Of a DNA stretch of 30,191 bases, positions 93-17,449 are shown one piece after another. The notes under the pieces are model-generated. The model was not told where the DNA came from. It made no database searches and saw only the letters and a list, made by a program, of their open reading frames with translations. The first letter of the stretch is position 1. Every line of letters begins with the position of its first letter. The stretch comes from a virus: positions 1-30,191 of the IMG/VR virus record IMGVR_UViG_3300025097_000031. One strand, given 5' to 3'. A program made the translations under genes and the position numbers.

Positions 93-119
93 AAAAAACC
101 GGATTTCGCCCGGTTTTTT
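93..119 (-). terminator. Rho-independent terminator closing the structural operon
   Basis: A perfect 10-base-pair stem, AAAAAACCGG at 93-102 and CCGGTTTTTT at 110-119, encloses a 7-base loop. Read leftward, the GC core is followed by a run of six T, the classic intrinsic terminator form. It starts three bases beyond the stop codon of the last gene (122-652). The A/T flanks are symmetric, so it could also act on rightward transcripts. Confidence 0.9.
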
Positions 120-121
120 GT

Positions 122-652
122 TTACTCAAATTTTAACATTCTTTCCATAAAGCTTTTTTTGTCTGGTTCCATCAACTCCTCAAATTCACTCATTTTCTTA
201 TTACGCTGTGTCGCTGACGTTGCTTGCGTCCAGTAGCCGTCTGTATATACCTCACTGTCTCTCTTTTTTGGGTTCCTTTCTTTCATTAAACTAAAGTACT
301 CAACACTTGCGTCTACGACGTCCTCTTTTTTGTTTTCATCAAACGTAGGGCTAAGTCTACCTAGACGTTCTAATTCTTTTACTGCCAGTGTGGTGAGTCC
401 TGTGAGCCATCTCATTTCTCCGGGGTCAGCGTTTGCTTTGTTTGTACCACCAGACGACTCTAATTGCATAAGTGTCTTTCCAAGATTTGCTTTGTATTTA
501 GCCTCCTCGGACGCTCTTATATCTCGCGGGTCTGGTTCGCGTTTATAAGTAACAGGACCGAATCTCTTTTTAAGCCTACTTATAAATCCCTCCTTGCCCG
601 TGGTTTGAGGTGTTGTAACGGCTGTATTTGTTTGTGGTGTTATTATTCTCAT
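122..652 (-). CDS. Putative virion-associated lytic transglycosylase (SLT-like fold)
   Basis: This is a 176-residue protein encoded by the last gene of the operon. Residues 58-128 follow the pattern of Slt/lysozyme-like transglycosylases: a helix ending in LMQLESSGGT with candidate catalytic Glu65, then a GLTTLAVKEL stretch where the family has its Gly-Leu-(Met)-Gln region, then FDENKKEDVVDAS and EYFSLMKERNP, resembling the helix after the family's N-[IV]-x-A-G-x-x-Y-L motif. Such enzymes cleave peptidoglycan, and in phages they open the wall during DNA entry. It begins MRIITPQT, nearly the same as the N terminus of the adjacent giant protein, and AVTTPQT follows at 11-17. The stop of the gene upstream is probably not this one; its own start overlaps the upstream neighbour's stop as TAATG. 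The family call rests on motif spacing alone, and the canonical Gly-Leu-Met-Gln is degenerate. Confidence 0.5.
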   Translation of the reverse strand: MRIITPQTNTAVTTPQTTGKEGFISRLKKRFGPVTYKREPDPRDIRASEEAKYKANLGKTLMQLESSGGTNKANADPGEMRWLTGLTTLAVKELERLGRLSPTFDENKKEDVVDASVEYFSLMKERNPKKRDSEVYTDGYWTQATSATQRNKKMSEFEELMEPDKKSFMERMLKFE

Positions 653-3600
653 TAATCTACTTCACGTCTTAACTCTAAGCTGATAATCCCCGCCCTTTGT
701 ATCTCTCGGATGAATGATTGATATTCTTCTTCCGGCATCCTCGTCCTTAATTCCTCTAAGACAACTTTCTTTTGATCGTTAGAACCAGCAGACAGAAGTA
801 CTTGTACTTCAGCGGTAGATTCACTCTTTTGCATACCGAGTTGGAAACTCTTTTTAACAGAGTTCTTTTCATCCCGCTTATCTCTTGAATTATCAAATTC
901 TTGTGAACCAATCCATTGTTCAGCAAATCTATCTTCATACTCTCTTTGATTAAACTCTGGAGTTCCGTATGCTGGGTCTTTTATAGCCTCCTCTACATAG
1001 TCGTAAATCATCTCCCATTTATCAAGACGTTTTCTCGCCTCTAGTTGAGCTTGGTTCTTTGCCACTTGGGTAAGCATTTCTTTTGTTCCGTAATCAGATA
1101 CTTTCAAGAATCTACCGATAACACCTCCAATGATTGGAATCTTAACAACCTTTTCTATCGTAGTCTTTTCTTGTGGAACTCTATCTGTAACAGAGAATCT
1201 TCTAATGATACCTCCACCAACAGCATTGAACGTCCATTTCAACATAGCGATATTTGCACGCATACCACCGGCTTCATGTACTGTGTCTGGAAGTATTGGG
1301 CGTCCTCTGAACGCGTCATACGGATTAGCTCCAGTAGAGTATCGCCAAAGTGTATATGGGACAGTCACTGTTGGTGTCATAGATGGTAGGTTTCCTCCAG
1401 TGTATTCAAAGATTTGAGCGACATCCGCGTTCCACGCTACGTCATTCGTTGCTCCGGTAAATGTTTTCCACGCTAAACCTCCCAAGAAACGTCCCGTCTC
1501 ATCATTAGGAACACATACATATATAGTCTTGCCGTTATCAGTTTGTCCCATAGGGACTGTCACCATACAGTTTGTCTTATCGTGTTCTGGTATATCCTCC
1601 ATCATCCCTTTCAAAGTAGTACCAAATAGTCCCATTTGTGCGGCGATCATTATGAATTTCGGAAGATATGTTTGCTTTGCTGTTTTCCACCAATAACCCC
1701 CCATTGTCTCCGGATTAGTAGCTGTCTCAATATCCGCGCGGATACCCTGTGTAATTGCGTTTGAGAATAGAGCTATTTCGTTTGTTGCTGGTTTAAGGTA
1801 TCCACCATCAAAGAAGTCTGGAGAACCTTGATGCCTACGAACAAAACTAGCTTCATCTGGTGTTAGTGGTCTATCCCCTCCGGTAAACTCCCAGAACCCA
1901 GCTCCTTTTGGTAGTGTTTCAATCAAGTCTCCCATCTGCCTAACTGAATCAAGGAGCGCCATGACAGGACTCTTTAACCATCTCTTTTTCTCTTTCTGGA
2001 AACCCGCGATACCTCGTTCGTTCATTATTCTCTCTATCTGCGAGTCAGCAAAAGCATCACCCAGAGCCATATCGTTGAATGTTACAGAGAACACTTTTTC
2101 TTTTTCAAGCATATGGAGGTCGTCAATCGCTTTCTGCCACTTAGCGTTCTTTGCTTTTCCATCTTTCCCTAGTTTTGGTCCGAACGCTCTCGTCCTAGCT
2201 AGTGGGTAAGCTTGGTAATATCTCTGGACTGTTCTTGCTAGTGTCATATCCTTTCCTCCTTTATTCTTGAAGTTGGTCTTTTTCCAGAACCTCCAGAAGT
2301 CACGGATAAAGTTATGAGTTTGGAATCCAATACTGAATACAATATATACTGGTCTGAACCATTTTTTGTTTATATAACGGAGGGGTGTAAGCATAACAGA
2401 CACAGCTTTTATGTTACCGATACTGTCATTCTCTAATGAGCCTTTAACGTAGGGGTCTACATAGTAGCCTTGCGCGATACCTTTATCTTTATAAACAACT
2501 AAATCCTTTTTAACTGTCTTACTTTTAGATGCCACGAAACGTCTACCTTGACTGGTCATTGTGACATTAGCTTTCTCTGCCTCTTTAAGTGGAATAAATA
2601 CCTCTTGTATTGCCGCTCTAACAGCTCTATTCCTTTCTATTGCGCGTACAGTGGATATTAGTTTAAGAATTGTAGCGTCTGCTACGTTCTCAATCATATC
2701 AAAAGTACCAAGAGACTTGTAGATTTCTGATGTATGCGCTTCGTCTAAGTACTCTAACACTTGGAATGTTCCGTATGCTGGATTGTCTACTATCTTTTTA
2801 TTTAATGCGGGTGTGTATAGTCCCTCTTTGTATGCTTCGTCTGTAATCTTTTTAAGAGCAGTATTAAAGTTCTTCAAAGCTTTATTTAGGGTACTTAACT
2901 GTTCTGGTGTTAGGTCATTCTCTAATGCGTCATACATTTCACGCGCCGCGTCCAGTGTAATACCTCCGGGATTTGCTTGCTTTGACCTATCTCCTTTGGT
3001 AATACGTCTTAGGAATATAGCTTCACCAAATACTACCCACGGAATATCCGCTTTCATAATACTTTGATAGATTGGATTGAAGTCAGCTTCAAGAATAGCT
3101 TTAATCTTACCTCCAAGATAATTACGCTCCTCAAACATATATAGAGGGTCCTCATCTGGATTTATATATTTACCCTCTGCAAGAACCTTTTTTCTAGCAT
3201 CTATAAGTGGATAGTTTGTACTGATGAAATTATACTTAAAGTTGTCTTTGTATTCTTTCCTATTAACCTTTCGTTGCGCGTCGCGTGCTTTCTGTATATC
3301 TAGCGCTTTTCTTTCTCCAGCTCCAAACATTTCCCAGACAGTACGCCTACGGGTCGCAACTAGCTTCGTTCTGTCACCGGTAAGCATAGCTTGGATATTA
3401 AAGTACGCGTCTTTAACTATAGGTTTTTTGTCTAGGTGTTCAAAGAATAGGTTATATGCCTCTGGTGCTTTCTCCTCAACAAGCGCTGGATCGTTGAATA
3501 ACGCTGATAGGAAATCTGCGTATATCTCTGCGGAACTCTTACGATACTCTAGGAATCCTTTTGGTGTTTGTTCTTCCGTAAGGGGAGTACCAACAAGCTC

Positions 3601-6600
3601 TATTCTGCCGGTATTAGCGTTTATCTTCTTTTCGTACTTCATCAAAGGTCTCCATTCTTTAGATAGCGCCCACAGTTCTTTGTATACAGCGCTGTTTGAA
3701 CGCGTTGCTCCCGCCTTTGACGTAAAGTCTTTACGGAAGTTCTTTAGTACGAGGAGTCTGCCGAGTAGGTTCCCGCGCGCCATTGTTTTATTAGGTAGAT
3801 AGTCTGTAAGGTGTCCAATTTCGTGAGCTAATGTCTTAGCTAATTGTGTTGGGTCAAACAGTTCTGGGTCAAATAGGTCAGCAAGAATAGTAACTGTTCC
3901 ATCACCTTTACCGAGGAAAGAACCTAACACTTCCTTACCAAGCGACTTACTTACCTTTGTTCGTATCTTTGGAACTTGTCCCATCAACTCTTTAGCGAGC
4001 ATCACTAACTCTGGTATTTCAATAGCTTTAATCTCGCTTGCTTTTGGTGTAGATACTGGGTCGCCGTTCGCATACTCTCCGATACTGGCAAATGTTTTAC
4101 CATCTGGACCAACTGCTTTGAATCCAGCTCCTGTCTCTTTCAAATCCTCTGAAGTGATAATTACTTTCATTCCAGCTTTAAGGTTATCTTCAACAAGTCC
4201 TAGAGCTGATGGTTTAAGTAGGATTGATGTCTTGTCATCTTTATAGATAAGCTTCAAGTCCTTATCAACAGTAAATGTAAGTTCTCCTCCGTGCGCTTTA
4301 ATCATACCTTTGAGACCTGTCTTAGAGACGTGTTGAGGGGGAGGTAGTACCTTTTTGCCCTTTATCTTTACTATATCTTTACGCTTTGGTCCCGGCTTAA
4401 TGCGTAGGTCTGCTGGCTTTGCGGTTGGTTTTGCTTTAGGTTTAACCACAGGCTTAGGTGACTCACTTTTGGTCACCTCTCTCTGTGTTTGTTTTTCTTT
4501 CTTAGTTTCTCTCGCTTTCTTCAAATCTTCAATATTCTTTAATCTCCTTTCCTCTTTAATCTTCCGAGAATTAGCCCTTGCTTTCTCAACATTTTCTTTC
4601 ACTTTTCTACCAACAACGATAGCGTCTTTATTTAGAACAAAGTAATCGCTTTTACCGCTTCCTCCTGTGAGTACGTCATATCCAGTCTTTGTTGGATCAC
4701 CGCCATCACTCCAATTACCTTTGTTTTTAATATTTAATATGTCTGTACCTGTCCGTTTAGCCTTTTCAATAAGGTCTTGAACTAGGGTGTGTGGATCTAT
4801 CCTCTTTCCAAGATAAGTTTCTGCCGATTTTAGACTATCTATTTTCAGTATTGATGCCTCTTTCTTAATCTCCGCCTCAATAGGTGAAAGGTCTACCCTA
4901 TCTATAGCGTTTCTCTCTATTTCATACTTCTGTGTATCGTAGTTATAACGAACCTCATCATTCGGTCCGGGCTTCATACCAAGCTTGTACGGCTCCACAG
5001 TACCACCACCAGTATATACACTAGCTGTTTTCCATCTCTCTAGGTCTGTTGTGAAATAAAGAATATCCTCTCCAAACTTCTCTGTTCGGACTCCCCCTTG
5101 CTTACCACCCGTTCCGTGTACTGGTGGTAAGGAGGTATCAAATCCCTCGGTAAGTATCTTGTTTACGTTCTCATCCTTAGTAAAGTGTGTGATTTTCTTT
5201 AATGGTGGTTCTTCTACCGGTGGCGTTACTGGAGGTTTTTCTACTGGAGGGGGTGTAATTATTGGTTCTGTTGGAGGTGTGACTGGAGGTGCTGTTGCTG
5301 GTGGTTTAACAACAGGAGGTGTCTCTACTGGCGCTGGTTCTGGTTTAATTGGCGCTGGTTCAATTTCGGGCGGACGTGGCGTTGTAACTTTTTGCGCAAT
5401 AGATGTAGTAATTCCTTTGAGCGGTGCAACTGTGCTACCCGTAATAGACATACCCATACCAAATAGACCTCCTCCAAAGGCCGCCTCCGGAACGCCCTCA
5501 AACAAGTCTTGGTGTTCGTTATAAGTCAAAGCCCATGCGTTCTGTATTAACTCCTGTGTACCCTCCGTTCCGGCTTCAGTCAATGTGCCTGTTCCAGCTC
5601 TTATTAATGCGTGTGTTAGATGGGTTCTAAATGTATTCTGTACAATCGTCTTGTTCGGAGCGGTAAGTATCTTAGAGGTAGAGAACGCATCCAATGGAGC
5701 GATTGTCATTCCTACCAATATAGCTATATTCTGAATAGCCCTTTCCTCTTTTGGAGTAAGTTCATATCCTGTCTCTTTATAAAAATCTTTAGCTTGCTGG
5801 TAACTGTCACCTGTATTAAATATAAATGATGGACCCAATGCTCCCACCATAGACGGAATCCCCGCACCCTTACTAACAACAGCAATACCGGCTATCGTTC
5901 CGAGGATAGGTAATTGTGACCCTATTATCTTAGCAATCTCTATTTCTCCCTCCTCACTAGCAAGTTTTTCAATGAAACCTCTATCGTCAGACATATCATA
6001 TAGGTCTGGGTTTGCCTCTATAAACTCTATAACCTCTTGATTTGCCGCGGCCGCTAGTTCCCCTTGTTTTTCAGCTGTCTTATCAGCACCAATTTTTGAA
6101 TAGAATATCTGATTATAGTTATATATAAGGTTCTTAACAGAGGGTAAACCAACACCTTTAAACGTCCTAGAGACAGCGCTTCGTCCCTCTTTGGTAGATA
6201 TGGTATCGTATATATTCTTTGAAATCTCTGGACTTGATTTGATGAATTTCCCACCAGTTTTATACGCTGAAATACCAGCAAGTCTATCACCGGCATCAAG
6301 TATCTTCATACCTAAATCACTATCTACTCCCTCTAACTCTTTTGTCGCGCCGATAAAAGCCTCCATATCCTCATTCTGGAAAGCAAGAGCTTGTTTTTTC
6401 TTTGCGTCATTCTTCTTTTTCTCATCTATATTGTATCCCTCTGCCGCCTCTCTGAAGAACTTAGTATCAGATAACTTATCAGTAAGCCAATTAAACCCTT
6501 TTTTTGGTACACCAAGAACATCCTTTACTAAAGGTTTGTATAAATCAACAGCGGCTTTTGGCATCCCCTTAATAGTTTGTCCCACAATTCCCGGAGCCTC

Positions 6601-6741
6601 TGCTGGCGCTGGAGGAGGTGTAGGCATTGGCGAGTCCGGAGTATAAATCTGGAACTTACTGTTGCTTGATGATGATGGTGTTTTTACTTTAAATTTACTC
6701 TCACCTCCATTACCATTACTTGTTGGTGTGATTATCTTCAT
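652..6741 (-). CDS. Giant polyvalent internal virion protein with ADP-ribosyltransferase-like, zincin and LPD38-like regions
   Basis: This 2029-residue protein is the largest in the window. In order: three T-P tags (1-8, 17-24, 30-37); a helical region with hydrophobic Gly/Ala-rich segments (about 270-440) and TEAGTEGTQELIQ near 390; a proline-rich linker (about 451-512); an ADP-ribosyltransferase-like domain (about 515-710; His519, Tyr562); a Lys/Glu-rich segment (about 712-800); a zinc-protease motif HEIGH at 973-977 with candidate third ligand Glu1072; and a long C-terminal region (about 1440-1900) with NFIRDFWRFW and NEIALFSNAITQG, resembling the phage large-polyvalent-protein domain LPD38. 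A hydrophobic segment lies near 1690. Proteins of this architecture are thought to be packaged and injected, like T7 gp16 or P1 DarB. Its placement between an internal-protein gene and a transglycosylase-like gene fits. Domain names are from memory of family patterns; enzyme activity is inferred. Confidence 0.72.
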   Translation of the reverse strand: MKIITPTSNGNGGESKFKVKTPSSSSNSKFQIYTPDSPMPTPPPAPAEAPGIVGQTIKGMPKAAVDLYKPLVKDVLGVPKKGFNWLTDKLSDTKFFREAAEGYNIDEKKKNDAKKKQALAFQNEDMEAFIGATKELEGVDSDLGMKILDAGDRLAGISAYKTGGKFIKSSPEISKNIYDTISTKEGRSAVSRTFKGVGLPSVKNLIYNYNQIFYSKIGADKTAEKQGELAAAANQEVIEFIEANPDLYDMSDDRGFIEKLASEEGEIEIAKIIGSQLPILGTIAGIAVVSKGAGIPSMVGALGPSFIFNTGDSYQQAKDFYKETGYELTPKEERAIQNIAILVGMTIAPLDAFSTSKILTAPNKTIVQNTFRTHLTHALIRAGTGTLTEAGTEGTQELIQNAWALTYNEHQDLFEGVPEAAFGGGLFGMGMSITGSTVAPLKGITTSIAQKVTTPRPPEIEPAPIKPEPAPVETPPVVKPPATAPPVTPPTEPIITPPPVEKPPVTPPVEEPPLKKITHFTKDENVNKILTEGFDTSLPPVHGTGGKQGGVRTEKFGEDILYFTTDLERWKTASVYTGGGTVEPYKLGMKPGPNDEVRYNYDTQKYEIERNAIDRVDLSPIEAEIKKEASILKIDSLKSAETYLGKRIDPHTLVQDLIEKAKRTGTDILNIKNKGNWSDGGDPTKTGYDVLTGGSGKSDYFVLNKDAIVVGRKVKENVEKARANSRKIKEERRLKNIEDLKKARETKKEKQTQREVTKSESPKPVVKPKAKPTAKPADLRIKPGPKRKDIVKIKGKKVLPPPQHVSKTGLKGMIKAHGGELTFTVDKDLKLIYKDDKTSILLKPSALGLVEDNLKAGMKVIITSEDLKETGAGFKAVGPDGKTFASIGEYANGDPVSTPKASEIKAIEIPELVMLAKELMGQVPKIRTKVSKSLGKEVLGSFLGKGDGTVTILADLFDPELFDPTQLAKTLAHEIGHLTDYLPNKTMARGNLLGRLLVLKNFRKDFTSKAGATRSNSAVYKELWALSKEWRPLMKYEKKINANTGRIELVGTPLTEEQTPKGFLEYRKSSAEIYADFLSALFNDPALVEEKAPEAYNLFFEHLDKKPIVKDAYFNIQAMLTGDRTKLVATRRRTVWEMFGAGERKALDIQKARDAQRKVNRKEYKDNFKYNFISTNYPLIDARKKVLAEGKYINPDEDPLYMFEERNYLGGKIKAILEADFNPIYQSIMKADIPWVVFGEAIFLRRITKGDRSKQANPGGITLDAAREMYDALENDLTPEQLSTLNKALKNFNTALKKITDEAYKEGLYTPALNKKIVDNPAYGTFQVLEYLDEAHTSEIYKSLGTFDMIENVADATILKLISTVRAIERNRAVRAAIQEVFIPLKEAEKANVTMTSQGRRFVASKSKTVKKDLVVYKDKGIAQGYYVDPYVKGSLENDSIGNIKAVSVMLTPLRYINKKWFRPVYIVFSIGFQTHNFIRDFWRFWKKTNFKNKGGKDMTLARTVQRYYQAYPLARTRAFGPKLGKDGKAKNAKWQKAIDDLHMLEKEKVFSVTFNDMALGDAFADSQIERIMNERGIAGFQKEKKRWLKSPVMALLDSVRQMGDLIETLPKGAGFWEFTGGDRPLTPDEASFVRRHQGSPDFFDGGYLKPATNEIALFSNAITQGIRADIETATNPETMGGYWWKTAKQTYLPKFIMIAAQMGLFGTTLKGMMEDIPEHDKTNCMVTVPMGQTDNGKTIYVCVPNDETGRFLGGLAWKTFTGATNDVAWNADVAQIFEYTGGNLPSMTPTVTVPYTLWRYSTGANPYDAFRGRPILPDTVHEAGGMRANIAMLKWTFNAVGGGIIRRFSVTDRVPQEKTTIEKVVKIPIIGGVIGRFLKVSDYGTKEMLTQVAKNQAQLEARKRLDKWEMIYDYVEEAIKDPAYGTPEFNQREYEDRFAEQWIGSQEFDNSRDKRDEKNSVKKSFQLGMQKSESTAEVQVLLSAGSNDQKKVVLEELRTRMPEEEYQSFIREIQRAGIISLELRREVD

Positions 6742-6745
6742 TGTC

Positions 6746-7804
6746 TTATGTTCCTAGCTTTCCTTGTGCGTCTAAGATTAGTTCAATCGCGTCTTTAATT
6801 TCATCCGATTGACCGGGCTGATTAAATATTGTACTTGCTCCATATTGACGTATGGCTGTTTCAAGTTCATCAATATATGACTCCTCCCAACCTCTACCTC
6901 TCAAAAGGTTCCTTTCTTTTTCCCCTATATTATACTTACCTTTATCCCCCGCTTTTTCATCTCTCTCATTTATTTGACTCTCCAAATTCTCTATTTGTTT
7001 TTGGCGGTATGCGTCATCTAATTCATTACCTTGTCCAGCGGCAATTTGTTCATACTTACCTGTCTCTGCGTTCCATTCCCAACGTGTCTGATTTTCACCA
7101 AGACTAAATCCTTTATTTCTTTCAGCTTCTTCATCAATCTTTGCTTTCTCGTATTCATAACGAGCCTTAGTCATTGTTTGTTTCTGTGCGTCCAGAGCGG
7201 CATAAGCTTGTGCTGATGCGGCGGCACCTCCTCGTAGGATAGCGTTCTGTCGGTCAGTGTATCCCGCTTCACCTCTAGCGAAACCAAGAGTTTCCCCACT
7301 CTCTAGGGCTTTCTCACGATCTAGCGCGGCCTGTGTATCGTGTTCTCTTAGAGCTTTGTTTGCGGCAGTTGTCTCGTCTGATGGTATAAGAGATTGGATG
7401 TATGCTTCATACGCTTCGTCTGCCGCGGTTCTTGTTGGTGACGTCGGAGTCCCACCATTAGTTCCCCCACTGGTTCCCCCACTGGTTCCTCCATTAGGGC
7501 TTCCGGAGTACCCTAATGTATCCATTAAACTGTCTCCAAGTTCTGGGTTCATACTAGAAATCTCACTTAGATATTCCTCGTTTGTTTTGTTTCCTATGTA
7601 AGCATCTTTCTCTGGGCTGGTAGCTGACTGGTCACTTGTGAGGTAGTCATAAAGTTTGACGTTCTGGTCCCCGCCTCCTGTGTAAGCTCCTCCGAAATCA
7701 ACACCAGCGTTTGTTGCTCTGGTGACATCCGCTTGTCGTGTTGCGCTATCCCAAGAATTGAATAACCCGTGGTTTTTTGTGTAGTAATTGTATAAATTTG
7801 ACAT
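6746..7804 (-). CDS. Putative internal virion or tail protein with a Gly/Thr-rich linker
   Basis: This 352-residue protein has no family I can name. It starts MSNLYNYYTKNHGLF. A low-complexity linker near residues 104-120 is built from GGTS/GGTN units. Residues from about 125 on are strongly helical and rich in Ala, Glu and Lys. The last 60 residues resemble a small helical domain (RNLLRGRGWEESYIDELETA). There is no signal peptide or membrane segment. It stops five bases before the giant protein gene and follows the neck adaptor gene, where short-tailed phages usually keep internal core or ejection proteins; that role is an inference. Its start has an AATAATATT leader and no Shine-Dalgarno sequence. 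Confidence 0.55.
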   Translation of the reverse strand: MSNLYNYYTKNHGLFNSWDSATRQADVTRATNAGVDFGGAYTGGGDQNVKLYDYLTSDQSATSPEKDAYIGNKTNEEYLSEISSMNPELGDSLMDTLGYSGSPNGGTSGGTSGGTNGGTPTSPTRTAADEAYEAYIQSLIPSDETTAANKALREHDTQAALDREKALESGETLGFARGEAGYTDRQNAILRGGAAASAQAYAALDAQKQTMTKARYEYEKAKIDEEAERNKGFSLGENQTRWEWNAETGKYEQIAAGQGNELDDAYRQKQIENLESQINERDEKAGDKGKYNIGEKERNLLRGRGWEESYIDELETAIRQYGASTIFNQPGQSDEIKDAIELILDAQGKLGT

Positions 7805-7822: not shown

Positions 7823-8791
7823 TTAAAATCCAGATGCGTTCTGATAAGACTCATAATAAGGTGGTCCGCTTAGATTTCTTGAACCGACCGGAGGAACATA
7901 CGCTCCCTCTATACTTTCACCCTCATTTTCAAGCATTTGACCAACTAACCCTCCGACCATGTGGGATAGTCCAGCCTCTTGCCCTCCGTCATACAGCCTC
8001 CAATAAGTATTTGCTACCTTTGGATCTGTTGGATTGTTTGTTGATAGATATAAAGCAATCGTACGATACACTGGAGCCATATCATAAGCTTCCGGTATAG
8101 GTGACATTTCGGCTATGACACATGCGGCAGTTCCAGCCGCGATCGCTGTTCCCTCATAAGGTGCGACTAGAGTGACTGTTGTTGCGGTTGCTGACGCTAT
8201 CTCGTACCACTGACCATCTCCTGTATTATCTACTCCGGTACTTGTTATTCGTATATATTTTCCAGCCATTGAAGCAAGTCCACCAGCACTGATTGTTATT
8301 ACTGTCCCGCCATTCGCGATTGTTGTTACTGTTGATGATGTAAGGTCAGCTACAGTTAAGTCTCTCACTTGCTTACGTCCTCTGAATGTAATCGTACCAG
8401 CAGTAGATGATGGTGTTGGTTCTATAAGAACCTTGTTATCCTGTATAAAGTAGTATTGTGGAACATCTGATTCTCCTAGCTGTGCTGATAGGATATTGTT
8501 CCAGTGTTCCGGACTGTAGACAGGTGTAGGAGTGTAAACTGTCGTACCAACAGTGACGTATATATCTATAATCTTCCTTATCCCAGCGGGGATTGAATAC
8601 CCTTGCTGACTGGCAACAGTAGCTACGTTCGTTACTGTTTGTAGGAACCACCATTTACCAGAGCGGATATTACAGACAGTCCTTATACTGTCATTAAGAT
8701 ACTGGTCCAATAACGCCATATTGGTTGTATCAGTCGTTAAGACCTTTGTATTTGTTGCGGCTAGATTTCGTAATGTTGTGTATGATTTCAT
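7823..8791 (-). CDS. Putative head-to-tail adaptor (neck) protein
   Basis: This 322-residue protein has the pattern of podovirus-type adaptors: a helical N terminus (LDQYLNDSIRTVCNIRSGKW), then WWFLQTV, a Tyr-x-Ile-Pro segment (QGYSIPAGIRKIIDIYV), then TPTPVYSPEHW, YYFIQDNKVLIEPTP and a helical C-terminal part (YDMAPVYRTIALYLSTNN). A beta-rich insertion at about 150-232 includes AGKYIRI, GQWYEIASAT and VTLVAPYEG, a module common in phage neck and tail proteins. Such proteins bridge the portal ring and the tail. The start follows AATAATAAC. The gene lies far from the portal, separated by the fibre block. The adaptor call rests on remembered sequence patterns and context. Confidence 0.55.
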   Translation of the reverse strand: MKSYTTLRNLAATNTKVLTTDTTNMALLDQYLNDSIRTVCNIRSGKWWFLQTVTNVATVASQQGYSIPAGIRKIIDIYVTVGTTVYTPTPVYSPEHWNNILSAQLGESDVPQYYFIQDNKVLIEPTPSSTAGTITFRGRKQVRDLTVADLTSSTVTTIANGGTVITISAGGLASMAGKYIRITSTGVDNTGDGQWYEIASATATTVTLVAPYEGTAIAAGTAACVIAEMSPIPEAYDMAPVYRTIALYLSTNNPTDPKVANTYWRLYDGGQEAGLSHMVGGLVGQMLENEGESIEGAYVPPVGSRNLSGPPYYESYQNASGF

Positions 8792-11460: not shown

Positions 11461-11703
11461 TTATTTGTTTAATATAAATTGCAATACTGCTAAAGCGACC
11501 GCGATACCACCACCCCAAGAGGCTATCCGTATCTCTAACCTACTAAACCTCTTATTCATAGTCGTATTATTGTCTGTCATCTCTGTTCGTAAATCTTTAA
11601 TAGCTTTAGGTAAATGATTCGTAACTTGTTGTTTAATATTCTCAACTTCTGCATTAAGTCTTGCTATATTTTTAATCATTTTTATTTTTTCTCCGTTTTC
11701 CAT
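11461..11703 (-). CDS. Holin-like small membrane protein (XhlA-like topology)
   Basis: This 80-residue protein has an N-terminal charged coiled coil (residues 8-58, LNAEVENIKQQV and RFSRLEIRI) and a single C-terminal hydrophobic segment (about 60-78, WGGGIAVALAVLQFIL) ending in NK. This layout matches the XhlA/haemolysin-type phage lysis accessory proteins, which anchor in the inner membrane with the coiled coil in the cytoplasm. It sits between two tail genes with TAA-T-ATG and TAA-C-ATG junctions, so it is co-expressed late. No endolysin gene is adjacent. A structural or superinfection-related membrane role is also possible. Confidence 0.5.
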   Translation of the reverse strand: MENGEKIKMIKNIARLNAEVENIKQQVTNHLPKAIKDLRTEMTDNNTTMNKRFSRLEIRIASWGGGIAVALAVLQFILNK

Positions 11704-11704
11704 A

Positions 11705-14503
11705 TTATACTACTGTGTTAAATGTCTTAACTGAAGCTATCGCTACACCGTTAATTGTTTTAATACTTGCCTTGGCTACTGTGTCTAAGGTTTTAAGGTT
11801 GGCTGGGCCTGAACTTCCTGCTGATGAGTGAGATACTTCAAGTCTAGGAGATACTGATATTCCTGTTGTATTGTCTGCTGAGTGAGCTGTAATTCTTGTG
11901 GTGTTTGTTCCCGCTGGAGCAACATCGTTTATGTCGTGCCCCTCCCTAAAGGCAAAATAAGAAATACCTGTAGCGTCTACCGTTCCAAGTCCTGTTGAGT
12001 TTACTATAAATGTTTCTGGTGTTGCTACCACCATTCCCCCAATAAAGTTTCTTGTTCCGTGCTCAGTTGGGTTGTCTACAGCGTCTCCTATATTTGGGTA
12101 GTCAGTGGTGGCTAAGGTTGTTGGTGAGCCTAAAGTACAGTCTACTATTGCGATATATGAATATTGGTCTCCGTCATCATCAGTAACTATTGTTGGGACA
12201 AGGGTGATGGTCGCTGAATCTATTGTGTCGGTATCTGTTATAGCTGAAGTATCAAAAAGAGTAGGGGTTCTGTAAATTCCATAAGTACCATTCTTGTTTA
12301 CACCAATAGCAAAGGTAGCCCCACTATAGTCTACTGTTGCCGCAGTTGTTTCATCGTGAGCAGTATTCCAACTAGCGTCTGCATCTTTAACGTGTCCATC
12401 TACCGATGTTGTTTCTGGATCTGCGTCACTCCAAAAAGAGTCGTAGTTATAAAGTCTGTCTACTGAATAGACTGGGCTACCACTTGGAGTTAGGTCGTTA
12501 CTATTACTAGAGCTATCAGTTGCGTCATTATCAAATAACCAATTACCTTGTAATTTAGAGTTAGAGTCTACAGGATTTCGTACCCCCATATTCTGTCGTA
12601 TCTCTGCGTGAGTTCTTTCCTCACTCCACACCCTTAGATTCTGAATAAGTCCGTCAAAGTAATTAGACGGAGTAGCCCTTGCTCCTATTTGGAATGGGTG
12701 AGCAGTGTCTCCTAAAGTTGTTGCGTCTTGCGTACCAGCAGTTCCAGCTGTCTCCTTTCCATTCACATAAAATTTAGCTGTGGAAGCAGAGATGTCTACT
12801 GTTACAGCGACGTGATACCACTGTCCAGCTTGTATGTCTGTGTTGAAAGTGGATATTGTAATATTTGTACTTCCGTCATAATAAAATAAACGAAGTTGTT
12901 TCGTACTAGAGCTATCTCTATAAGCAAATACCCAACCCTCTGAAGAATCTTCCCATTTTTGAGCTATACAATATTCCACGTCTGTTGCTGGAGCAGACTC
13001 TAATTTAACCCAAGCCTCAATAGAAAAGTCGGTTGTAAAATCCAGTCCTGTTTGACTAGCGTCTGTGATAGAAAGATATTGAGAACTACCAGCTTCCAAA
13101 TCTATACTGTGTGTATTCTCTGTGTTTCCGTCTGCTCTGAATGGGTGGTCTACTACCCAAGTTACATCATCTGTATTTACTGTGATGTCGTTACTGTTTG
13201 AAGTAAGGTCAAGAAGTCGTGTGTAGTCATTCATTTTCCAGTAACCCACTAGCCCAGCTTCATCTCCGTCAAGTTCTACTCTAGCGTTAGCTGTAATTTC
13301 TGCTTGGGTTCTTATGTCATTCCAAATACGGACTTCGCAAATCTCTCCATCAAAACCATTGGTGTTGCCGGGGTTACTACCTATGTAAACCAAGCCAGTA
13401 TTATCGTCAATATCGTCAGCGGCATTAGCGGCAGTTCCCCAACTAACTCCGTCCATAAAAAATTCACATTCTGTTCCAGCAGAATCTTTATCAAAAGTCC
13501 AAGCCATATGATACCACCTACCTACATCTAGTTCCCCTGTAGACCAAGAAGAAATATTATTTGTTGTATCTGCGGCAGTATCATAGATGTTCATTTTCAT
13601 TGTAAAAACATCACTACTATTCTGGTAGATAACATTATACGAATTTGCACCACCATCTATCCCCTTGGATAAAACATAATAACCTTCGTCTGTTGCTGGG
13701 GTTAGCCCAACCTTTACCCACGCTTCAATAGTTACTGTTGAAGTCATTGAAAGACTGGCACTATCTGGAATAGATAGATATTGAGTAGTAGCTCTTACAA
13801 ATTTAGATGTTGTCTTTGTTGCGTATGGTAAAGGTGTACCAGAGTTGTATAGAGCTGTTACTTCTCCAGATGTAAGTTCTTTAGACCAGAGAGCTAACTC
13901 GTCAAATCTTCCATTCATATAGTCCCCACTGGTACCATTAGCTCCCACATTAAAGTCAGCACTTGTATCAGCAATAGATGTGTTCAATGACCCTTGTGTG
14001 CTTCCTTGCTGTGAGCCATCTATATAAAAGTCTACCTCTCCAGAACTAGCCCTATAAATACAAACAATATGGTACCAAGTTGATAGGGTTGGTGTCCACG
14101 TAACAGCACCCGTTGTCTCATCCCCGCTCGTTCCGTCAGAAGAGATAATGAACTGTAGTTCTGTTGAACCGTATTCATAAGTAAACGTATATGACCTAGT
14201 AGATGCGTCATCACGCTTTGAAACTATCATACAGTTTTTAAGGGAATCAAAATAAGCCCAAACAGAAACAGAAAGGTCTCCCGTAATTGAAAGGGATGCG
14301 TTGTCCGATATATCTAACTGTTCTGAGTTGGCAGAAGTAAACTGCCCAGCGTTGCCAAGCTTACCTGTGGATTGTGTAACGTTAGCTATGTCTGATAAGT
14401 GATTAGTTCCGTGTCTGTCTATACGAACACCAGAAGCCTCCTCCATATCCCAATAAGATACGAGGTTCTGCGTAAGGGTTGCGTGTGTCTGAAAATCAGC
14501 CAT
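11705..14503 (-). CDS. Triple-LamG adhesin fibre
   Basis: This 932-residue protein carries three concanavalin-A/LamG-like jelly-roll domains at about 10-225, 235-445 and 470-690. Each shows the family signature: LVSYWDMEE or LVGYWKMND starts, LSVSVWAYF / VTIEAWVKV / FSIEAWVKL strands, W-Y-H-[IVM] strands (TWYHIVCIY, RWYHMAWTF, QWYHVAVTV), a [FL]-x-[ND]-G turn, and a final strand FDELALWSKEL / ICEVRIWNDI / IQNLRVWSEER. Residues 700-890 form another beta domain (IYRTPTLFDTSAI, DSATITL), resembling carbohydrate-binding DNRLRE-type modules. The C terminus has three 11-residue ASIKTINGVAI-like repeats. Such proteins bind surface glycans, so a host-recognition fibre is likely. Confidence 0.8.
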   Translation of the reverse strand: MADFQTHATLTQNLVSYWDMEEASGVRIDRHGTNHLSDIANVTQSTGKLGNAGQFTSANSEQLDISDNASLSITGDLSVSVWAYFDSLKNCMIVSKRDDASTRSYTFTYEYGSTELQFIISSDGTSGDETTGAVTWTPTLSTWYHIVCIYRASSGEVDFYIDGSQQGSTQGSLNTSIADTSADFNVGANGTSGDYMNGRFDELALWSKELTSGEVTALYNSGTPLPYATKTTSKFVRATTQYLSIPDSASLSMTSTVTIEAWVKVGLTPATDEGYYVLSKGIDGGANSYNVIYQNSSDVFTMKMNIYDTAADTTNNISSWSTGELDVGRWYHMAWTFDKDSAGTECEFFMDGVSWGTAANAADDIDDNTGLVYIGSNPGNTNGFDGEICEVRIWNDIRTQAEITANARVELDGDEAGLVGYWKMNDYTRLLDLTSNSNDITVNTDDVTWVVDHPFRADGNTENTHSIDLEAGSSQYLSITDASQTGLDFTTDFSIEAWVKLESAPATDVEYCIAQKWEDSSEGWVFAYRDSSSTKQLRLFYYDGSTNITISTFNTDIQAGQWYHVAVTVDISASTAKFYVNGKETAGTAGTQDATTLGDTAHPFQIGARATPSNYFDGLIQNLRVWSEERTHAEIRQNMGVRNPVDSNSKLQGNWLFDNDATDSSSNSNDLTPSGSPVYSVDRLYNYDSFWSDADPETTSVDGHVKDADASWNTAHDETTAATVDYSGATFAIGVNKNGTYGIYRTPTLFDTSAITDTDTIDSATITLVPTIVTDDDGDQYSYIAIVDCTLGSPTTLATTDYPNIGDAVDNPTEHGTRNFIGGMVVATPETFIVNSTGLGTVDATGISYFAFREGHDINDVAPAGTNTTRITAHSADNTTGISVSPRLEVSHSSAGSSGPANLKTLDTVAKASIKTINGVAIASVKTFNTVV
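11708..11803 (-). repeat. Three tandem 11-residue repeats at a fibre C terminus
   Basis: The last 32 residues of the LamG adhesin are ANLKTLDTVAK, ASIKTINGVAI and ASVKTFNTVV, consensus A-[NS]-[LIV]-K-T-[LIF]-[ND]-[TG]-V-A. The pattern suggests a small beta-stack or a tip-attachment tag. Function is unknown. Confidence 0.7.
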
Positions 14504-14504
14504 A

Positions 14505-16511
14505 TTATCCTGTTACTGTTATATGGTCGGGAGAAGGGTTGAAGTAAAGTTCGTTAGCTGTTAAAGCATAACCAACCACTCTTACAACATCATCTGTTCC
14601 AGATGGTGCTGCAACCTGTATTGCTGCGGCTGTAACTCCCACGTATGCTGGTGCCCCTACCGTTAGTGTTGGGAAGGCTGCATCAGCTCTAATAATTCCA
14701 CTAAGAAGAAGTGTTACTGAAGCGTCTTCATCTCCTGCCACCACTACTATTCCAAGCATTACTGTTCCTGCTGTTCCTACTGCATCTGCGTCTGTCTTCT
14801 CCCACTTAGAGTCTGCTACTGCTAGATAAACTAAATCTCCAAAGACAAGGTTTACACCTGCTGTTCCTGTTACTGTTGTTCCTGAATATTTACCATCTGC
14901 TGAGCCTGCTGGGTCTAGTGCTATTGCTGCGTTCTCACCCAGAGTAATAGCCCCTGTCATTGTCCCCCCTGCTAGTGGTAGGTTGTCTAAGAGGTTTTGT
15001 TCTGCTGAACCATCATAGTATTTAAGTCCATCTGATTCTCTCCAAAGGTCTCCCTCTGTAGGTGTTGCGTTACCAGAGTCTCCTACAAGTCTTAGGTGTG
15101 CGTCTCCGTCTACTATGTCTATTTCTACTGCTGGCAGTGATGTAGCTTCAGAGTCTATATGTAAACTTCTTGCGTTTCCATTTTGGTCTAACACAATTCC
15201 AGTTCCAGTTCCATCATTTATAAGATTAAGAAGAACTGCAGTAGAACTAGCGTGGTCTAAGTGCATATTCACAAAGACGTTATCTATTGTTGAAGAATTA
15301 GAATAGAACGTAGCTAATCTTCCTGTTGTTAGAGAGCTGGAAGAAATCTGTAAAGTATCTCCAGTTGTTGTTGTTGCGTCAATAAGTACAGCGTCAGATG
15401 TTGTATTTTCAGCGTCAATACTTAAAGCTAAAGCCTCTCCGTTCTGGTCTAAAAGAAGCCCGATTCCTGTTCCGTCATTCCTAACCACTACTGCGCCCGC
15501 CGCAGAGGTAGCGTGTTCTTGTATAACTGCTATCAGTTGCCCACTTGCTTGTATTCCCTCATTTTCAAAATGCACCATTGTTCCAGATGTGTTTTGTCCA
15601 TAGATTTCAAGTGCCGTAGAAGATGTTGCTTCGGTGTCTATGTAAAAACTTCCCCCCTCACCGTTCTGGTCAATGAAGATTCCATTCCCTGCACCATTGT
15701 TGGATACCCGTATTCCCCCACCACTTCCGCCCTGAAAAACCTCTAGGACTTGCGTGTCAAAGGCGGCATTTTTGGCCTTGAACTGAACAAGTTTATTTAC
15801 CTGGTCTCCAGTATTATCAGAAAACACATTTAAACCAATACCATCATTCCCAGTGTTTGATACAAAGAGGGCACCAGCAGTCTCTGAGTTTGCTGTTGTT
15901 CCATTCTGGTCTATGACTAGACCGTTTCCTGTTCCAGCGTTAGTTATGCTGACTGCTTGAGGATTATTAGTCGTATCATTCTGTGTAACAGTAAGTCCTA
16001 TGTCGTTTACAGTATCAGCTATTGTTATGTCTATAGCTCCAGCAAAAGTAGATGGTGTTGAAGTATCTGCTACAAAACTTTTAGCTGTTATTGTGTATGC
16101 ACCAACGTCCCAGTCCGCAGTAAGAGGTATCGTACCATCCGCCAGCAAGTCACCCGCGCCCGGAAGTCCGAGTTGGAAGTCCGTACCAGCATCATCCGTG
16201 AACCATAGTTCATTTGGAGTAGCTGTATTCACCCATATCTGGCCACTTCCAGCTACGTCCGCGTCTGCCTCCGCTTGCTCTTTTAGGAATATAACACCTC
16301 CATTGTCTATATTATTTCCATCAAGATTAAAATCAGCTGTCATTGGTACCGTTCCATCAGCTTTTAGGTCTCCAGATCCTCCACTATCAGTGTCCGTCAA
16401 AAGTCTCCCAGTGGCGGGGTTTACCTTGAAAGGTAGTACAACAGTAGCGTCGGTGCTGGAAACACCGGTTGATACTGGTACATGATTATCGTCTCTTATT
16501 GCGTCGGTCAT
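14505..16511 (-). CDS. Repeat-containing tail fibre with RDNNHVPV N-terminal module
   Basis: This is a 668-residue beta-rich protein. Residues 1-40 are the RD(D/N)NHVPV module shared with the upstream neighbour (16520-17449). GDLKADGTVPMTADF (about 47-61) and GDLLADGTIPLTADW (about 120-134) are related segments. Four copies of a unit with consensus N-x-G-[TA]-G-x-G-[LI]-x-[IL]-D-Q-N-G end at about residues 204, 284, 358 and 445. Residues 487-510 hold a linker (EGDLWRESDGLKYYDGSAEQ) typical of fibre ends. The last 150 residues form a DUF2190-like beta domain ending VVGYALTANELYFNPSPD, a common phage fibre tail piece. It is likely an elongated host-contact fibre. The receptor is unknown. Confidence 0.72.
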   Translation of the reverse strand: MTDAIRDDNHVPVSTGVSSTDATVVLPFKVNPATGRLLTDTDSGGSGDLKADGTVPMTADFNLDGNNIDNGGVIFLKEQAEADADVAGSGQIWVNTATPNELWFTDDAGTDFQLGLPGAGDLLADGTIPLTADWDVGAYTITAKSFVADTSTPSTFAGAIDITIADTVNDIGLTVTQNDTTNNPQAVSITNAGTGNGLVIDQNGTTANSETAGALFVSNTGNDGIGLNVFSDNTGDQVNKLVQFKAKNAAFDTQVLEVFQGGSGGGIRVSNNGAGNGIFIDQNGEGGSFYIDTEATSSTALEIYGQNTSGTMVHFENEGIQASGQLIAVIQEHATSAAGAVVVRNDGTGIGLLLDQNGEALALSIDAENTTSDAVLIDATTTTGDTLQISSSSLTTGRLATFYSNSSTIDNVFVNMHLDHASSTAVLLNLINDGTGTGIVLDQNGNARSLHIDSEATSLPAVEIDIVDGDAHLRLVGDSGNATPTEGDLWRESDGLKYYDGSAEQNLLDNLPLAGGTMTGAITLGENAAIALDPAGSADGKYSGTTVTGTAGVNLVFGDLVYLAVADSKWEKTDADAVGTAGTVMLGIVVVAGDEDASVTLLLSGIIRADAAFPTLTVGAPAYVGVTAAAIQVAAPSGTDDVVRVVGYALTANELYFNPSPDHITVTG
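15101..15941 (-). repeat. Four ~80-residue DQNG repeats inside the fibre gene
   Basis: The DQNG tetrapeptide recurs at residues 201, 281, 355 and 442 of the fibre encoded at 14505-16511, a spacing of 80, 74 and 87. The last three copies are followed by a conserved strand (YIDTEATSS, SIDAENTTS, HIDSEATSL). The nucleotide copies differ, so the duplication is not recent. Confidence 0.75.
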
Positions 16512-16519
16512 AATAATTA

Positions 16520-17449
16520 TTAATTAGTTTCTATTAATACTGCTCCTGTATCTGGATTAACATATACAGGTAACTTTTTTGTTGCATCTGTTGAATCTAC
16601 TGCCATCATTACTGGGACGTGGTTATTGTCGCGCGAGGCGTTTCCGGTCAAAGATGCGGTTACAGGTGTAATCACCGCTGTATCGTTAGCGTACAATTCT
16701 CCTATTTCTGTCTCCGTAAGTAGTCGTTTATATATTCTTGATTCTCTTATCTTGCCCTCATATGGAACTGCAGAACCATGATTTGAATTTCCCCATTGTA
16801 AATCTTTGTTTCCATAACCTGTCCATATTTCTAGAGCACCTATATTTTTAGTATCTTGTAATACTCCATCTACATACAAGTTTATATATCCATTTCCACC
16901 AACTGGGTCTGGGTGGTACTGACCAACTAAGTGATATTCTGTATCGTTTTCCATAGCAAGAATAGCGTCAGTATCATAAGTTGGACCACCAGAGTCAGTC
17001 ATTCTGCCACAAGCAAATCTCACGTGGTTACTTCCATTAAGTGAAAATCTTACATTATATTTGCACCAGATATATTGAGAAGCTAAGACATTTGTTGGCG
17101 TTATCCAAGTACTCCAAGTCATATCTCCAGATTCAAACTTATCTACTGTACCAGTTGCGCGTACTTTATACTCTACATCTACATTATCAAAAGTAAAATC
17201 AGAACCATCAAGAGTTACATTGTCAGCTATAATTGTTCCATCTAATTCACTAAGAGAAGAATCGTCTGCTGTAGTTCCCGCCGCCTCATCAAACTTCCAA
17301 TGACCAACTAAATCAGAGGCATGACTCGTCTTATCTACAAGCATTTGGTTTGAAGCGTCTAAAGCAATAGGAACAGGAGTAACGCCATCCACATAGGATG
17401 TTCCTATCAATACCGGCCTATGATTATTGTCCCTTATTGCGTCAGTCAT
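16520..17449 (-). CDS. LamG-type adhesin flanked by two RDNNHVPV modules
   Basis: This is a 309-residue protein. Residues 1-40 (MTDAIRDNNHRPVLIGTS) and about 268-309 (ASRDNNHVPVMMAVDSTDAT) are two copies of one module. Between them is a single LamG/concanavalin-like domain (about 45-258): LVGHWKFDEAAGTTADDSS, DMTWSTWITPT, EYHLVGQYHPDP, INLYVDGVLQDT and IRESRIYKRLLTETEIGEL. It probably binds glycans. The repeated module may be an assembly or attachment unit for fibres, an inference from its presence at the head of the next fibre too. Its start overlaps the upstream stop as ATGA; its own stop lies eight bases before the next start. Confidence 0.72.
   Translation of the reverse strand: MTDAIRDNNHRPVLIGTSYVDGVTPVPIALDASNQMLVDKTSHASDLVGHWKFDEAAGTTADDSSLSELDGTIIADNVTLDGSDFTFDNVDVEYKVRATGTVDKFESGDMTWSTWITPTNVLASQYIWCKYNVRFSLNGSNHVRFACGRMTDSGGPTYDTDAILAMENDTEYHLVGQYHPDPVGGNGYINLYVDGVLQDTKNIGALEIWTGYGNKDLQWGNSNHGSAVPYEGKIRESRIYKRLLTETEIGELYANDTAVITPVTASLTGNASRDNNHVPVMMAVDSTDATKKLPVYVNPDTGAVLIETN

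What the first reader, a model, noticed from the sequence alone, without database searches (positions are those of the whole stretch)
652..6741. One 2029-residue virion protein combines pore-like segments, an ART-like domain, a zincin motif and an LPD38-like region
The sequence shows an N-terminal hydrophobic/helical region, a proline-rich hinge, His519/Tyr562 in an ADP-ribosyltransferase-like arrangement, HEIGH at 973-977, and an LPD38-like C-terminal part. Large polyvalent phage proteins are known to be packaged and injected to protect DNA or manipulate the host, but the combination of a putative NAD-dependent transferase and a metalloprotease in one injected chain is worth examination. It could be a multi-effector delivery protein or an anti-defence factor.
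Basis: partly seen in the sequence, partly recalled or inferred. Interest (0 to 1): 0.6.

Follow-up and report, generated by a model that had tools for sequence, protein, structure and literature searches.

The report
Injected phage multitool protein, swappable cassette
This marine phage gene encodes a giant virion protein, probably injected into the bacterium with the DNA, that joins a membrane-insertion region and a metalloprotease to other parts; it belongs to a known class, but an otherwise almost identical phage carries a different giant at the same spot, as if it were an exchangeable payload.

Summary
The 2029-aa ORF is real (minus strand) and lies among the last genes of a podovirus-type structural operon. 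HEIGH 973-977 heads a zincin fold: it is invariant in 24/24 relatives, with Glu1072, and the predicted structure resembles lethal factor and PPEP peptidases. The C-terminal half is an LPD38-type polyvalent unit (Pfam hits in relatives map to 1711-1819; 67 viral structural matches). Residues 338-453 match the membrane-associated N-terminal domain of N4 virion RNA polymerase. The ART claim is not established: H519/Y562/D699 fits the published H-Y-D pattern, but no profile, homologue or usable model supports it. The layout (N4-type N-terminus, middle module, zincin, helical LPD38 C-terminus) is that of polyvalent proteins described in 2017: a new member of a known kind. The unexpected part is context. 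A contig with zero substitutions over 21 kb of backbone carries a different giant (1647 aa) in the same slot, swapped as one cassette with the end of the upstream gene and the downstream gene, exactly up to the operon terminator. Phages with no detectable terminase similarity carry 35-40% identical giants. I read it as an ejection chassis with exchangeable payloads. Virion location, injection and all catalysis remain inferred.

The parts
652..6741 (-). Giant polyvalent virion protein, 2029 aa (stop at 652-654)
   Evidence: penultimate gene of the structural operon on the minus strand
5386..6105 (-). aa 213-452: N4-vRNAP-like N-terminal membrane/injection domain, hydrophobic peak at aa 272-291
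   Evidence: PHROG 2206 (virion RNA polymerase) E 2.1e-8 at aa 338-453; shared with G017 giant; aligns with N4 gp50 aa 390-435
5203..5385 (-). aa 453-513: proline-rich hinge (43% Pro)
   Evidence: similar hinge in G002 and a few relatives but not in most
4597..5202 (-). aa 514-715: putative ART-like payload, H519, Y562, D699 (unproven)
   Evidence: residue pattern only compared with the H-Y-D signature in PMC5512222; no profile or structural support
4342..4596 (-). aa 716-800: strongly basic linker (35% Lys+Arg)
3397..4080 (-). aa 888-1115: zincin metallopeptidase domain; HEIGH 973-977, invariant Glu1022 and Glu1072
   Evidence: invariant in 24 sequences; VIA-align Z 7.5 to lethal factor and Certhrax, 6.3-6.4 to PPEP-1
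655..3396 (-). aa 1116-2029: mostly helical C-terminal region with LPD38 at aa about 1711-1819 (window 1285-1611)
122..652 (-). 176-aa last gene; candidate lytic transglycosylase by motif only (LESSGG...GEMRWLTGL); the counterpart in G002 is an SLT domain
   Evidence: G002 counterpart PF01464 E 2.6e-6; no profile, PDB or pairwise hit for the window protein itself
6746..7804 (-). 352-aa upstream protein (E1); first ~230 aa constant, C-terminus part of the exchanged cassette
128..7116 (.). Exchanged cassette: end of E1 + giant + last gene; flanks identical to contig IMGVR_UViG_3300025072_000028 (G002)
93..127 (-). Right border: stop codon of the last gene followed by an intrinsic-terminator-like hairpin (CCGG...CCGGTTTTTT), shared by both alleles
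7823..8791 (-). Tail adaptor-like protein (constant backbone)
   Evidence: PHROG 6013 tail protein E 1.3e-8

Best explanation
The gene encodes an ejected (pilot) virion protein of the polyvalent class, built like N4 virion RNA polymerase but without the polymerase. An N4-type N-terminal domain inserts in or anchors at the inner membrane during ejection; a flexible Pro-rich and then basic linker carries a middle payload module (here possibly an ADP-ribosyltransferase); a zincin of the lethal-factor/PPEP fold and a large helical LPD38 C-terminal domain form the conserved part, needed for packaging and for keeping or releasing the payload. After injection the zincin most likely cuts the chain itself, freeing the payload in the cytoplasm, or less likely cuts a host protein. 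The end of E1, the giant and the last gene are exchanged as one cassette between otherwise identical phages, changing the payload while receptor binding and capsid stay the same. Shown: domains by homology, zincin motif and predicted fold, cassette difference between two contigs. Inferred: virion location, injection, proteolysis, ART activity, selective reason.
For: Gene position directly after tail adaptor and E1. Zincin: TLAHEIGH and Glu1072 invariant in 24 relatives; structural matches at model residues 20-228. LPD38 in relatives at the same place; 67 BFVD matches at E<=0.001, several annotated LPD38 or LT_GEWL. N-terminal vRNAP match E 2.1e-8. N4 vRNAP has the same order (membrane NTD, payload, C1 with HExxH, helical C2; PMC12633501), and its N- and C-terminal domains are reported needed for injection and encapsidation (PMC4496689; unpublished data cited there). 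Relatives carry other modules in front of the same zincin-LPD38 unit: helicase (L089), DnaN-like clamp (L112), Zeta-toxin-like (L096), ART-PolyVal (L090, L094, L089), plus GGDEF and SLT in others. Pelagibacter phage Baldr has a 2329-aa giant with HELGH and LPD38. Exchange: 0 substitutions over rc 2056-23069, then a different giant, identity resuming at the stop codon/terminator. Incongruence: G017 shares TerL 63% and MCP 69% but only the NTD of the giant; L084 has neither yet is 40% identical over aa 806-2028.
Against: No proteomics or experiment. The ART module rests on three residues. Profile-profile comparison of the C-terminal unit with seven N4-like CTDs was not significant (P 0.04), so kinship with the N4 CTD is unproven. 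The N-terminal match is short. No self-cleavage site is known; Pro-rich hinges are absent from most relatives, which speaks against a conserved Pro-Pro cleavage site. Cassette exchange rests on two metagenomic contigs without reads.
Confidence: 0.7

Rival explanations
1. The giant is a purely structural ejection or scaffolding protein: the zincin is needed only for virion maturation or is catalytically spent, and the middle region is not an enzyme.
For: N4 vRNAP is packaged unprocessed although the zincin-containing region is required for encapsidation (PMC5512222); no ART profile, homologue or model.
Against: Invariant HEIGH and Glu in 24 diverged sequences argues for catalysis; relatives carry clear enzymes in the same slot.
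Confidence: 0.25
2. The cassette difference is an assembly artefact: contigs of two different phages were joined through short shared sequence.
For: Both contigs end in the same shared 127 bp, which looks like an assembler k-mer overlap; only two contigs show the site; no reads are available.
Against: The E1 reading frame stays open and homologous across the left junction in both contigs; exact identity on both sides of both cassettes would need unrelated phages to share E1 and the terminator exactly; GC matches the backbone (0.413 and 0.418 vs 0.419); independent backbone/giant incongruence in other phages.
Confidence: 0.12
3. The zincin is a host-directed effector (protease acting on a host protein) rather than a self-processing enzyme.
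For: Closest solved folds are secreted proteases that act on other proteins; Iyer et al. leave this open.
Against: The zincin stays fused to the LPD38-type C-terminus in every aligned relative while the front modules change, fitting a chassis role.
Confidence: 0.25

Closest known systems
Polyvalent proteins (Iyer et al. 2017, PMC5512222)
   Same: Large multi-domain protein near late virion genes; zincin MPTase; LPD38; possible H-Y-D ART; proposed injection and autoprocessing.
   Different: LPD38 is below Pfam threshold in this protein and ART is unproven; the paper sections read here do not describe near-identical phages with exchanged giants.
Phage N4 virion RNA polymerase gp50 (PMC12633501, PMC4496689)
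   Same: Order of parts: membrane NTD, linker, payload, HExxH domain, large helical CTD; NTD sequence match.
   Different: No RNA polymerase domain found; the CTD is not significantly similar by profile comparison.
Pelagibacter phage EXVC032P Baldr giant (WDQ27601.1)
   Same: HELGH and LPD38 C-terminal half, 22-33% identity.
   Different: N-terminus has a transglycosylase-like motif, read by eye; no N4-type N-terminal match and no ART-PolyVal match.
T7 gp16 and P22 ejection proteins (PMC8954989)
   Same: Last genes of the structural operon, pilot function, mosaicism of domains including the peptidoglycan hydrolase.
   Different: Much larger, with zincin and LPD38; the hydrolase candidate is a separate gene here.

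Membership tests
Polyvalent proteins | Large multi-domain protein encoded beside virion/late genes | tested here: met
   2029 aa, after tail adaptor and E1
Polyvalent proteins | Zincin-like MPTase with HExxH and Glu on a following helix | tested here: met
   HEIGH 973-977 and Glu1072 invariant; fold match
Polyvalent proteins | LPD domain | tested here: met
   Through aligned relatives and structure; the direct hit on the window is absent
Polyvalent proteins | Injected with DNA | not testable with these tools
   Needs virion or infection proteomics
ART-PolyVal (PF18760) | Profile match to the family | tested here: not met
   No match at E<=10, while four related giants do match
ART-PolyVal (PF18760) | H-Y-D active-site residues | tested here: inconclusive
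   H519, Y562, D699 present, alignment unverified
ART-PolyVal (PF18760) | ART fold | tested here: inconclusive
   Single-sequence model pLDDT 45, no meaningful match
N4 vRNAP family | T7-like RNA polymerase domain | tested here: not met
   No such hit in Pfam or PHROGs scans
N4 vRNAP family | Membrane-associated N-terminal domain | tested here: met
   phrog_2206 positions 321-431, E 2.1e-8; conserved motif aligned with N4 and G017
N4 vRNAP family | C1 zincin plus C2 helical CTD homologous in sequence | tested here: inconclusive
   Profile-profile P 0.04
Lethal-factor/PPEP-type zincins | Shared fold around HExxH | tested here: met
   Z up to 7.5 over about 140 residues; moderate, since Z under 8 can be a common arrangement

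The most novel reading that the evidence does not exclude
Marine podovirus-like phages use a standard ejection chassis (membrane N-terminus and zincin-LPD38 C-terminus) as a plug-in slot, and populations of one phage keep several payload cassettes at this locus that are swapped whole between E1 and the operon terminator, so that the injected effector rather than the receptor-binding protein is the fast-changing part.
Probability: 0.35. Interest if true: 0.65.

Novelty: new member of a known kind. Interest (0 to 1): 0.45.

Why it matters
If the exchange is real, a pair of phages identical over 21 kb but with different injected giants is a natural experiment: differences in host range or defence sensitivity could be assigned to the injected cassette alone. 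The shared zincin-LPD38 unit with different modules in front gives a way to mine phage genomes for injected anti-host and anti-defence enzymes.

Tried and rejected
ART homologues: tblastn in phages, a viral-contig scan, a degenerate DNA motif scan that gave two chance hits, PF18760, NCBIfam, a local profile of ART-PolyVal members and a single-sequence fold: nothing. Pro-Pro self-cleavage (suggested by PPEP-like fold matches): Pro-rich hinges occur only in the window, G002 and a few relatives, not with the zincin in general. N4 CTD kinship by profile: not significant. More alleles of the cassette: exact flank searches found only contig 3300025072_000028. Tox-MPTase2 (E 0.017, below cut-off) was treated only as a lead to zincin. 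One genome-contig scan gave only a 12-kb contig from a Bacteroidetes metagenome-assembled genome, so no host assignment.

Full report
The window is a virus record of 30,191 bases with a podovirus-type structural operon on the minus strand: terminase, portal, scaffold-like protein, major capsid, several fibre or LamG-like proteins, tail adaptor, a 352-aa protein (E1), the 2029-aa giant and a 176-aa protein, then a terminator-like hairpin. The ORF in the finding is exact, on the minus strand.

Domain checks. Pfam gives only a sub-threshold Tox-MPTase2 match. PHROGs gives virion RNA polymerase at aa 338-453, E 7.6e-8 for the whole protein and 2.1e-8 for the N-terminal part. This part is shared with the giant of a related phage, G017, and a motif (QN...N.DL..GV...A..G...G.G) aligns with N4 gp50 residues 390-435. 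A scan with the zincin alignment found 30 loci, 29 of which encode HEIGH in an open giant ORF; many are alignable over the whole C-terminal half. In 24 aligned sequences TLAHEIGH is invariant, as are Glu1022 and Glu1072. The AlphaFold model of aa 888-2029 (pLDDT 75, pTM 0.66) matches lethal factor, Certhrax and PPEP peptidases over the zincin part (Z about 6 to 7.5) and 67 viral models at E<=0.001, several named LPD38. LPD38 hits 8 of 31 related records; three were mapped and fall at about window aa 1711-1819.

The ART claim. H519, Y562 and D699 fit the H-Y-D pattern that Iyer et al. report for polyvalent ARTs. Nothing else supports it: no PF18760 match, no homologue, a poor model. Other giants of this group do have ART-PolyVal domains, so the prior is reasonable but the claim is open.

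What varies and what stays. In front of the zincin-LPD38 unit, relatives carry helicase, clamp, Zeta-toxin-like, ATPase, ART, GGDEF or transglycosylase modules. One relative's N-terminal part matches 'internal virion protein with endolysin domain', phrog_342. This fits ejection proteins, whose peptidoglycan hydrolase is known to move between proteins (PMC8954989).

The cassette. Contig IMGVR_UViG_3300025072_000028 (G002) matches the window's reverse complement at 99.95% over 23,075 bases. Apart from three differences at the junction itself, the substitutions all lie in the first 2.1 kb and none in rc 2056-23069. At the junction, inside E1, similarity drops abruptly. G002 has a different E1 C-terminus, a 1647-aa giant alignable to the window's only over aa 769-1140 (about 30%), and an SLT transglycosylase gene. 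Identity resumes at the stop codon of the last gene and runs through the terminator to the end of both contigs. The shared end is 127 bases in both contigs, which I read as an assembler overlap at a branching point; reads are needed. GC content is the same in both cassettes and backbone. Incongruence is general: G017 has 63% TerL and 69% MCP identity but shares only the N-terminal domain of the giant, while L084 has no detectable TerL or MCP match and a giant 40% identical over 1235 residues. Some of these records may be fragments, so absence of TerL is weaker evidence than the presence of a similar giant.

Mechanism. N4 vRNAP has the same order of parts: a probable membrane-spanning NTD, a low-complexity linker, the enzyme, C1 with HExxH, and a large helical C2; its CTD lowers polymerase activity, and it is ejected last through a channel made by other ejection proteins (PMC12633501, a preprint). 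NTD and CTD are reported as needed for injection and encapsidation (PMC4496689). I therefore propose the same division of labour here, with the polymerase replaced by another payload, and the zincin as probable self-processing enzyme as Iyer et al. suggest. Sequence kinship with the N4 CTD could not be shown (P 0.04).

Verdict. A new member of the polyvalent protein class, ordinary in kind, with good evidence for zincin, LPD38 and an N4-type N-terminus, unproven ART, and an interesting cassette exchange that deserves a read-level check.

Noticed in passing
window 14505-16511 and 16520-17449: Two neighbouring fibre-like proteins start with nearly the same motif (MTDAIRD-N-NH-PV), which recurs at the C-terminus of the 309-aa one and in fibre genes of related phages; possibly a virion attachment module.
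   Followed up: no
window 11705-14503: 932-aa protein that by eye looks like repeated LamG/concanavalin-like lectin domains; identical in the two phages that differ in the giant.
   Followed up: no
window 11461-11703: 80-aa coiled-coil protein with one C-terminal transmembrane stretch between fibre genes; holin- or XhlA-like in looks.
   Followed up: no
window 4342-4596 (aa 716-800 of the giant): Linker with 35% Lys+Arg before the zincin; could bind DNA or aid packaging.
   Followed up: no
L089, L094, L112: Giants of 2820-4142 aa with helicase, ATPase or sliding-clamp modules in front of the same zincin-LPD38 unit.
   Followed up: partly
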